Source: Bacteroidaceae bacterium (GTDB lineage: Bacteria; Bacteroidota; Bacteroidia; Bacteroidales; Barnesiellaceae_A). Taken from it: a stretch of DNA of 64,000 nucleotides. Location of the stretch: the NCBI GenBank assembly GCA_017410245.1, contig JAFQRE010000039.1, forward strand, positions 1-64,000, given 5' to 3'. Positions 3,988 through 34,752 of the stretch are shown here, piece after piece (position 1 is the first letter of the stretch; the number at the start of each line of letters is the position of its first letter). The position numbers and the translations under genes are program-made. The notes under the pieces are model-generated. The model had not been told where the DNA came from, searched no databases, and saw nothing but the letters and a program-made list of their open reading frames with translations.

Positions 3988-4076
3988 CAATAAATAGTAG
4001 AATACAGAATAGGTATGAGATGTTTTGCGGTTATATTTTTTCGGCAATGATTATCTGTTTCGCATCGCTTAGCTAT

Positions 4077-4163
4077 TGAGGTGCTACTCAAAGATATTGT
4101 GCATATGCCGTGAAAAATATTGAAGTAAACTTCATATTTCTCGCTCGTTTCTCAGTATCTTTG
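4077..4163 (+). promoter_or_regulatory. duplicated promoter module, copy 1 (upstream of Pmp3-like gene)
   Basis: This module contains, in order, a weak palindrome (4077-4090, TGAGGTGCTACTCA), a perfect 6+2+6 palindrome (4121-4134, TGAAGTAAACTTCA) and a -7 box TATCTTTG (4156-4163), 21 bases before the ATG of the Pmp3-like gene. Positions 4077-4152 match the reverse complement of 34506-34581 at 66 of 76 positions without gaps, including 43 identical bases in a row (4110-4152). The strong palindrome covers the place where the -33 box would be, so it is a likely operator. The cognate regulator is not recognised in this window. Confidence 0.75.
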
Positions 4164-4184: not shown

Positions 4185-4358
4185 ATGAAACGTCTTAAGT
4201 GGATTCTTTTTACCATCTTGTTTCCGCCATTGTCGGTGGTGGGCTATGGTATGAAGCGTATAGCTATAGTATTGCTACTGACGTTGTTGGGGTGGTTGCC
4301 GGGTATAGTGGCTGCATTTATCGTGCAAAGTGGCGATATACCCGAAGATACAATTTAA
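4185..4358 (+). CDS. YqaE/Pmp3 family small membrane protein
   Basis: A 57-residue peptide with two hydrophobic helices (about residues 5-22 and 26-47) and a short acidic tail (GDIPEDTI). This is the size and layout of the Pmp3/YqaE/UPF0057 proteolipid family, with the typical FPPLSVV turn after the first helix and the second-helix pattern GWLPGIVAAF. Members are often induced by membrane, salt or cold stress. The ATG at 4185 is preferred over an upstream in-frame start because it fits the family length and lies just after TATCTTTG. It has a dedicated promoter module that also occurs in front of the YdeI-like gene at 34121. Confidence 0.88.
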   Translation: MKRLKWILFTILFPPLSVVGYGMKRIAIVLLLTLLGWLPGIVAAFIVQSGDIPEDTI

Positions 4359-8162: not shown

Positions 8163-8195
8163 AAAAAAAGCAAGTGAATTAATTCACTTGCTTTG
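8163..8195 (-). terminator. terminator of the tRNA gene
   Basis: A perfect 11+11 base inverted repeat (8170-8191, GCAAGTGAATT / AATTCACTTGC), followed on the minus strand by seven Ts. It lies 4 bases past the tRNA 3' end. Confidence 0.88.
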
Positions 8196-34120: not shown

Positions 34121-34462
34121 CTATTTTGCTATCTTCCACACTTTACGTCCGGCGTCAGTCATGAGTCCGCGTTGTTCAAGGTCGGCACAACGCTGTTTGT
34201 TGAGTTCGGTCCAATGGCTGCCTCGTCGGCGTGGAGTGAGTCGTTGCGCTAAACGGCCATCGGGCAGGCGTTTCTGTGTTGAGTCAATCCACCCAAAACA
34301 CAATGCCTCTTCGACAACTTCAGCGTAGGGTATAATACCCTTTTCGGGGTGTTTGGAACGAGATGTAACTACCCAGCACACCACCTCGGTTGAGTGATTC
34401 TGCTCAAACCACAGCCTCAACTCCTCTCGTTCTGTAAAATGTAATAGATTTATAACCTCCAT
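34121..34462 (-). CDS. YdeI/OmpD-associated family protein, short form
   Basis: A 113-residue protein matching the N-terminal half of the YdeI family: FTEREELRLWFEQNH, then EEALCFGWIDSTQKRL near 52-67 and QRLTPRRRGSHWTELNKQR near 73-91. Family members are often near 190 residues, so this one lacks the usual C-terminal segment; whether this is a natural short form or a truncation cannot be told by eye. Function is unclear. The name reflects an old association with porin expression. It is driven by a promoter module that duplicates the one upstream of the Pmp3-like gene at 4185, implying shared control. Confidence 0.82.
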   Translation of the reverse strand: MEVINLLHFTEREELRLWFEQNHSTEVVCWVVTSRSKHPEKGIIPYAEVVEEALCFGWIDSTQKRLPDGRLAQRLTPRRRGSHWTELNKQRCADLEQRGLMTDAGRKVWKIAK

Positions 34463-34493: not shown

Positions 34494-34581
34494 CAAAGAT
34501 AGGGAAGAAACGAGCGAGAAATATGAAGTTTACTTCAATATTTTTCACAGCGAGTGCAAAATATCTTTGAGGTTTACGTCA
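34494..34581 (-). promoter_or_regulatory. duplicated promoter module, copy 2 (upstream of YdeI-like gene)
   Basis: Read toward the YdeI-like gene, this contains a weak palindrome (34568-34581, TGACGTAAACCTCA), the perfect palindrome (34524-34537, TGAAGTAAACTTCA) and TATCTTTG (34494-34501), 31 bases before the ATG. 34506-34548 is identical over 43 bases to 4110-4152 in reverse orientation, and the match extends through the weak palindrome. In both copies the two palindromes are exactly 44 bases apart, centre to centre. Confidence 0.75.
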
Positions 34582-34634
34582 AAGGTAGATAAAATATTTT
34601 TCTCATGCTGAGCAAGCAGTCTTTTTAGGCTCTG

Positions 34635-34665: not shown

Positions 34666-34752
34666 CAAAAAACATGCGGGTTTATAGGTATAATTATAGA
34701 GAGTATGCCCCGATTTTGGTAAAAGAGTGTTTAATCAATTTTGTTTTTTGTT

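What the first reader, a model, noticed from the sequence alone, without database searches (positions are those of the whole stretch)
4077..4163. A promoter module of about 88 bp occurs twice, upstream of a Pmp3-like gene and a YdeI-like gene
Positions 4077-4152 and the reverse complement of 34506-34581 align without gaps with 66 of 76 identical bases, including 43 in a row (4110-4152 = 34506-34548). Both copies are followed 3-4 bases later by TATCTTTG and then by the ATG of a small gene in the same orientation. The downstream genes are unrelated (a Pmp3/YqaE membrane peptide and a YdeI-like protein), so the conserved DNA is not a remnant of gene duplication. This suggests a small shared regulon, or a mobile promoter, not known to me.
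Basis: partly seen in the sequence, partly recalled or inferred. Interest (0 to 1): 0.75.

Follow-up and report, generated by a model that had tools for sequence, protein, structure and literature searches.

The report
Mobile mini-promoters that target promoters
The two matching promoter stretches are copies of an ~85-letter mobile DNA element that slips in exactly behind the start signal of gut-bacterium genes and brings a fresh copy of that signal, so it can spread and stack up in front of essential genes apparently without breaking them.

Summary
In detail: 66/76 identical bases, 43 in a row. But the two copies are not a pair. The same genome holds about 32 units, single or in tandem (84-86 bp period), each ending in the Bacteroidetes -7 box TATCTTTG just upstream of a gene. 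The genes behind them are unrelated housekeeping genes, so this is not a regulon. Comparing occupied and empty orthologous promoters in eight congeners shows a clean insertion of 83-86 bp immediately 3' of the native -7 box. The element's last 8 bases are a new TATCTTTG, so the promoter and mRNA leader are re-formed, there is no true target duplication, and a new target exists for the next copy. Each unit has two hairpins whose arms covary strongly. Older, upstream units decay and the gene-proximal one stays intact. Related units of different sequence but the same layout occur in about ten of ~120 sampled Bacteroidales families. It works like an IS200/IS605-type single-strand element (insertion 3' of a short target, end hairpins), but no mobilising enzyme was found, and Y1 transposases are absent from most carriers. 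So: a mobile promoter, supported; its enzyme, unknown. A new variant of a known kind.

The parts
4071..4078 (+). left junction: (T)AGCTATTG, apparently the decayed older -7 box behind which copy 1 inserted
   Evidence: alignment of 29 units; in other copies this position is TATCTTTG/TACCTTTG/TAACTTTG
4079..4163 (+). element copy 1 (85 bp), ends in the -7 box it carries
   Evidence: unit HMM score 78; blastn 88% to consensus, E=1.8e-25; coordinates
4071..4096 (+). hairpin P1 (left arm = left -7 box)
   Evidence: covariation of the apical pairs over up to 166 units; ssDNA fold of the consensus
4110..4144 (+). hairpin P2 (GTGAAAAATATT-GAAGTAAACTTC-ATATTTCTCGC); apical stem 4122-4133
   Evidence: covariation, fold
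4156..4163 (+). TATCTTTG, -7 box carried by copy 1 and predicted to drive pmp3
   Evidence: matches TAnnTTTG consensus (PMC7366714); 148 of 161 arrays end in exactly this
4185..4358 (+). downstream gene, Pmp3 family
   Evidence: PF01679 E=1.7e-8
34580..34587 (-). left junction of copy 2: TACCTTTG, apparently the native -7 box
34494..34579 (-). element copy 2 (86 bp), ends in the -7 box it carries
   Evidence: blastn 93% to consensus, E=5.4e-33; CM R1 97 bits
34562..34587 (-). hairpin P1 of copy 2 (TACCTTTGACGTAAACCTCAAAGATA)
34514..34548 (-). hairpin P2 of copy 2; apical stem 34525-34536
34494..34501 (-). TATCTTTG, -7 box carried by copy 2

Best explanation
The two stretches are copies of a non-autonomous mobile element of about 85 bp. 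SHOWN: (1) it sits immediately 3' of a pre-existing -7 promoter box (TAnnTTTG) and ends in its own TATCTTTG, so the insertion recreates the -7 box in front of the unchanged leader and gene; (2) because its right end is itself a target, further copies, also of other families, stack in tandem, the gene-proximal one being best preserved; (3) each unit has two hairpins with strongly covarying arms: P1 at the left end, using the target box as its left arm, and P2 about 23 nt before the right-hand -7 box; (4) species carry their own homogenised families with this layout across several Bacteroidales families. INFERRED: the unit now supplies the promoter of the gene behind it. It spreads as hairpin-folded single-stranded DNA in the manner of IS200/IS605 elements (cut and join 3' of a short target next to end hairpins, no target duplication), moved in trans by an unidentified enzyme; the melted, single-stranded -7 region of an active promoter would be a natural target. 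I put the mobile, -7-box-targeted, promoter-recreating element at about 0.8, and the HUH/IS200-like chemistry at about 0.35.
For: Copy number 29-32 in one 2.5-Mb genome versus 0 reversed controls. Occupied versus empty orthologous sites: tgt in the own genome reads TAACTTTG[85 bp ... TATCTTTG]TAGCTTAAA, empty G003 reads TAACTTTG-TAGCTTAAA (z=5.7 against unrelated promoters); pcrA (G005 vs G002 z=7.2; G000 vs G002 z=3.5), dapB (z 5.9-7.9), parE; inserts 83-85, 169 and 173 bp. The left box follows the native one while the right box is TATCTTTG whatever the left one is, hence element-borne and not a duplication. 118 of 128 arrays precede an ORF in the same direction, 27 in the opposite one; median distance from box to start codon 27 nt. 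59 of 161 arrays are tandem, period mostly 84-86; last unit better than first 46:6, p=1e-8; -7 box intact in 57/59 last versus 57/79 inner units, p=2e-4. Mixed-family stacks (L379; GNAT promoter of G006; gltX promoters). Covariation: P2 pair 51-62 is G-C 95, C-G 51, A-T 12 (163/166 paired, shuffled 84); P1 pair 8-17 is A-T 86, C-G 39, T-A 9. The consensus folds as ssDNA into exactly P1 and P2, z=-3.1. Species-specific families and wider distribution. IS608 precedent: insertion precisely 3' of TTAC, kept as left flank, subterminal imperfect palindromes (PMC5934647).
Against: No enzyme or autonomous copy was found; left-half-only and right-half-only matches are just degraded units. Y1 transposase (PF01797) is absent from the own genome (99% complete) and from 8 of 9 genomes of another carrier family; where present in the own genus it sits among different GC-rich palindromes. 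No expression data: promoter activity is inferred from position and box conservation. Some tandem neighbours are near-identical (L006), so plain tandem duplication also occurs. Some 'empty' relatives carry another family at that promoter rather than nothing. Left boxes are degenerate in many old copies, including window copy 1.
Confidence: 0.75

Rival explanations
1. A regulon: a DNA-binding protein recognises the palindromes and the repeats are conserved operator-promoters of co-regulated genes.
For: Palindrome P2 is centred about 31 bp upstream of the -7 box, where a class II activator would bind, and the units are always promoter-oriented.
Against: Downstream genes are unrelated and differ between species; orthologous promoters mostly lack the unit; palindrome arms flip between G-C, C-G and A-T while keeping pairing, unlike an operator with fixed bases; conservation covers 43 contiguous bases including the spacer.
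Confidence: 0.07
2. REPIN-like element moved by a REP-associated Y1 transposase (RAYT).
For: Two hairpins per ~85-bp unit, many intergenic copies, tandem arrays, as in REPINs (PMC3116915); Y1 genes occur in G001, G003, G004 and G005.
Against: Those Y1 genes are flanked by other GC-rich palindromes, not by these units; no Y1 in G000, G002, G006, G007 or in 8 of 9 genomes of another carrier family; no GTAG motif; REPINs are not tied to promoter boxes.
Confidence: 0.12
3. Site-specific insertion by a tyrosine recombinase acting on a folded or double-stranded core site (integron attC-like): the P1 site recombines with the -7 box.
For: P1 has the shape of a recombinase core site (two arms round a short centre), the junction is at one fixed arm end, and there is no duplication.
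Against: The targets share only one arm (TAnnTTTG); integron core sequences (GTTRRRY/RYYYAAC, from general knowledge) are not seen; no dedicated integrase was looked for or identified.
Confidence: 0.15
4. No transposase: promoter modules are copied between loci by microhomology or gene conversion at the shared TATCTTTG and kept because they are good promoters.
For: TATCTTTG offers 8 bp of identity at each site; no enzyme found; species-wide homogenisation resembles conversion; related to the 'mobile promoter' idea of Matus-Garcia et al. 2012 (cited in PMC4596501).
Against: The junction is always at the same place, unit length is nearly constant, and both hairpins are maintained by covariation, all of which ask for a specific recogniser.
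Confidence: 0.2

Closest known systems
IS200/IS605 insertion sequences (IS608, ISDra2) and their non-autonomous derivatives
   Same: Insertion precisely 3' of a short fixed target that stays as left flank; no target duplication; imperfect hairpins near both ends; fixed orientation relative to the target (PMC5934647)
   Different: No Y1 transposase found in the own genome; the target is the 8-bp promoter -7 box and the right end repeats that box; the target box is itself an arm of the left hairpin; only 85 bp
REPINs / REP-BIMEs with RAYTs
   Same: Small non-autonomous hairpin elements in intergenic DNA, tandem clusters, conserved stems, lineage-specific families (PMC3116915, PMC8266576)
   Different: Not GTAG-headed, always oriented with a gene, inserted at promoters, carries a -7 box, no associated RAYT
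Promoter-bearing MITEs (Correia, BrickBuilt of Porphyromonas gingivalis)
   Same: Short mobile repeats upstream of genes that carry promoters (PMC10969869, PMC4596501)
   Different: No terminal inverted repeats plus target duplication; here the insertion point is the promoter box itself and promoter geometry is restored
Putative mobile promoters (Matus-Garcia, Nijveen and van Passel 2012)
   Same: The same promoter sequence reused in front of unrelated genes
   Different: Here an element with defined ends, empty sites, hairpins and a target rule; the original paper could not be read here, known from its citation in PMC4596501

Membership tests
IS200/IS605-type element (non-autonomous) | insertion immediately 3' of a short specific target retained at the left, no target duplication | tested here: met
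   occupied/empty junctions, left/right box table
IS200/IS605-type element (non-autonomous) | subterminal imperfect hairpins at both ends | tested here: met
   covariation, ssDNA fold
IS200/IS605-type element (non-autonomous) | guide sequence 5' of each hairpin pairing with the cleavage sites | tested here: inconclusive
   a complement of the box (CGAAGATA) exists but lies 3' of the P1 loop; the few box variants scored are too few to prove covariation
IS200/IS605-type element (non-autonomous) | mobilised by a Y1 HUH transposase (TnpA, PF01797) | tested here: not met
   none in G000, 1 of 9 in another carrier family; a very divergent or lost enzyme is not excluded
REPIN/REP | linked RAYT gene flanked by the same repeats | tested here: not met
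   Y1 genes sit among other GC-rich palindromes
MITE | terminal inverted repeats with target-site duplication | tested here: not met
   right box does not follow left box; left end AGGTAAACC and right end TATCTTTG are not inverted repeats
Bacteroidetes housekeeping promoter | -7 box TAnnTTTG | tested here: met
   148 of 161 arrays end in TATCTTTG; consensus from PMC7366714
Bacteroidetes housekeeping promoter | -33 TTTG motif | tested here: not met
   that region is P2 right arm / ATATTTCTCGCTCG
Regulon promoter | shared by functionally related genes and conserved at orthologues | tested here: not met
Known structured RNA | match to an Rfam family | tested here: not met
   only one sub-threshold chance match, outside the units

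The most novel reading that the evidence does not exclude
A so far unrecognised class of transposable element whose target is the core promoter box itself. It is recognised in or near the melted transcription bubble, inserts between the -7 box and the start site, and regenerates the promoter, so that it can colonise essential genes at little cost, stack in dated layers, and replace the upstream region of many promoters in a lineage.
Probability: 0.4. Interest if true: 0.9.

Novelty: new variant of a known kind. Interest (0 to 1): 0.75.

Why it matters
Mobile promoters have mostly been inferred from sequence reuse; here there are defined ends, empty sites and a target rule, so the idea becomes testable. 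An element that hits the -7 box yet restores it shows a way to insert in front of essential genes (parE-like, polA, gltX, glmS, dapB, cdsA) apparently without harm, and would mean that the upstream parts of many Bacteroidales promoters are recycled mobile DNA. That affects promoter annotation, regulon prediction and the design of expression parts in gut bacteria. The missing enzyme is a concrete target for discovery.

Tried and rejected
Divergent-promoter idea (CAAAGATA on the reverse strand at 4089-4096 and 34562-34569): dropped, because nearly all other copies read CGAAGATA there. Operator/regulon idea: rejected. Y1/RAYT as the mover: the genes lie among other repeats and are absent from most carriers. 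Reverse transcriptase as the mover: PF00078 only in G003 and G008. Autonomous long version: half-matches in the own genome are degraded units. Phage or plasmid carriage of the window's type: none in viral contigs, plasmids or phages; a related type occurs once on a Phocaeicola record and on unverified human-faecal 'phage' scaffolds, weak evidence because such scaffolds may be bacterial. An attempt to show box/guide covariation in other families gave too few units. A single alignment of all types aligned P1 poorly and was not used for pair counts.

Full report
OBSERVATION. The reported match is exact: 66 of 76 identical bases, 43 consecutive, the only inverted match of 20 bases or more between distant places in the window. 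TATCTTTG follows 3 and 4 bases later, then a gene. One downstream gene is Pmp3 (PF01679); the other, called YdeI-like, has no Pfam match.

NOT A PAIR BUT A FAMILY. The 22-mer core GAAGTAAACTTCATATTTCTCG has 29 hits with up to 3 mismatches in the window's genome and 0 for the reversed control; the full unit has 32 matches at E<1e-7. Aligned, the unit is TATCTTTG|AGGTAAACCTCGAAGATAnnGTGCACTCGCTGTGAAAAATATTGAAGTAAACTTCATATTTCTCGCTCGTTTCTnnnTATCTTTG. Several loci carry two or more units head to tail with a period of 84-86 bp. Eight of nine genomes of the genus have it, with species-specific versions. A second family, B (GGGATAAAAAATAAGTAAACTTATTTTGTTCTCCTCTCGCTTATC...TATCTTTG), with the same layout, is in six of them but not in the window's genome.

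GENES BEHIND IT. In the own genome the downstream genes include parE/gyrB-like, mrp, cdsA, polA, dapB, ygiQ-like, tgt, glmS, gltX, a pcrA-like helicase gene, an acyl-ACP thioesterase gene, DUF2027, DUF4286 and DUF1599 (names not backed by Pfam rest on my reading of the sequence). Over 161 distinct arrays from many genomes, 159 have an ORF downstream, median distance 27 nt, and the largest cluster of similar proteins has 4 members. 118 of 128 arrays with enough flank have a >=100-aa ORF starting within 120 nt downstream; on the reverse strand 27. So the copies are gene-oriented but functionally incoherent.

EMPTY SITES. One joint protein query located the orthologues of 19 downstream genes in eight congeners, and their upstream regions were fetched. 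Most lack the A unit; some carry family B or another variant instead. Where leaders are conserved, the joined flanks of the occupied site match the empty site across the junction: tgt (empty TAACTTTG-TAGCTTAAA; occupied TAACTTTG-[85 bp]-TAGCTTAAA; z=5.7 against unrelated promoters), pcrA in two species, dapB, parE. At DUF4286 the same picture can be read by eye. The insert lies immediately 3' of the native -7 box. The right-hand box is TATCTTTG whatever the left one is (TACCTTTG, TAACTTTG, TATCTTTA...), so it belongs to the element and is not a target duplication.

STACKING. Because the right end is a new -7 box, it is a new target. Tandem arrays (59 of 161), arrays mixing families A and B (L379; the GNAT-gene promoter of G006) and the preservation gradient fit this: the gene-proximal unit scores better than the first in 46 cases versus 6, and its -7 box is intact in 57/59 against 57/79 for inner units. 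Part of that gradient may be selection on the working promoter rather than age. Some neighbours are near-identical and probably plain duplications.

STRUCTURE. Over up to 166 distinct units the apical pairs of both palindromes change together: P2 pair 51-62 is G-C, C-G, A-T or T-G in nearly all of 166 (163 paired; shuffled expectation 84); P1 pair 8-17 is A-T, C-G or T-A in most of 146 (135 paired, expected 73); P1 partners slid by 1-2 columns do not pair. Bases change while pairing stays, as expected of a hairpin rather than a protein operator. P2 has an extra unpaired T. Folding the consensus as single-stranded DNA returns P1 and P2 and little else (z=-3.1). Pair changes do not clearly favour one strand.

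BREADTH. A covariance model of family A found related units in other families of the order, and a pattern for the general layout (CTCGGC ... CTC[GA][CG]CTT ... TATCTTTG) found more, with zero reversed-control hits in all 295 genomes; it also hits G008, the congener without A or B units. Together about ten of ~120 sampled families carry the type. In one, all nine genomes have 17-68 matches to the tail motif TGCNCTCGCCTTTCACTATCTTTG, many in 83-87 bp tandems. Sequences differ between families; the order box, hairpin, hairpin, box is constant. Named MAGs with the window's type come mostly from herbivore gut samples.

MECHANISM. The known system whose insertion logic fits best is IS200/IS605: IS608 inserts exactly 3' of TTAC, keeps that as left flank, has imperfect palindromes near both ends and moves as single-stranded DNA (PMC5934647). 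Here the target would be TAnnTTTG, and the CGAAGATA arm of P1 can pair with it. The -7 region is unwound in the open promoter complex (general knowledge), which would expose it to a single-strand enzyme; this is inference. Membership is not claimed: the Y1 transposase that defines the family is absent from the own genome and from most carriers, and the Y1 genes present in four congeners are surrounded by different repeats where inspected. A reverse transcriptase is also unlikely. No autonomous copy was found.

VERDICT. The finding is real and larger than described. 'Regulon' is not supported; 'mobile promoter' is, with a specific insertion rule. Promoter function and the enzyme remain to be shown by experiment. 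In the library searches made here I found no report of this element; the library lacks most subscription journals, so novelty is judged with that limit.

Noticed in passing
L361 (G005) and L363 (G001), around the Y1 gene at about 1480-1930: Y1 (REP-associated-type) transposase genes embedded in GC-rich palindromic repeats (e.g. AACCCCCAACGAA...GAAGTTGGGGG with GTCTGAAAGACGT), an apparently ordinary REP/RAYT system separate from the -7-box elements.
   Followed up: partly
window 4089-4096 (-) and 34562-34569 (+): In the two window copies, unlike nearly all others, the right arm of P1 reads CAAAGATA, giving a full TATCTTTG on the opposite strand that faces the HlyIII gene and the secreted-protein gene at 34741; it could make these two promoters divergent.
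   Followed up: partly
window 8167-8194: A perfect 28-bp palindrome around GCAAGTGAATTAATTCACTTGC followed by a T run (on the minus strand), just after what looks like a tRNA 3' end; probably a terminator.
   Followed up: no
G000:C13:190749 (locus L023), gltX promoter: A third element variant (AAGAAAAACCCAAGTAAACATGGTCTTTCTTCGCTCACC...TATATTTG) lies gene-proximal to a decayed family-A unit; a related variant is at gltX in G007 and dapB in G005.
   Followed up: partly
L467 (OY726013.1, Phocaeicola massiliensis plasmid record) and L468 (MT835658.1, human faecal scaffold): Units of a related family, in L468 stacked in tandem before an ORF, occur in human-gut sequences, so the type is not confined to herbivore MAGs.
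   Followed up: partly
window 34121-34462 (-): The 113-aa protein called YdeI-like has no Pfam match even at E=10, although orthologues are found in three congeners, in two of them (G001, G004) right after what looks like an Ogt/MGMT-like coding sequence.
   Followed up: no
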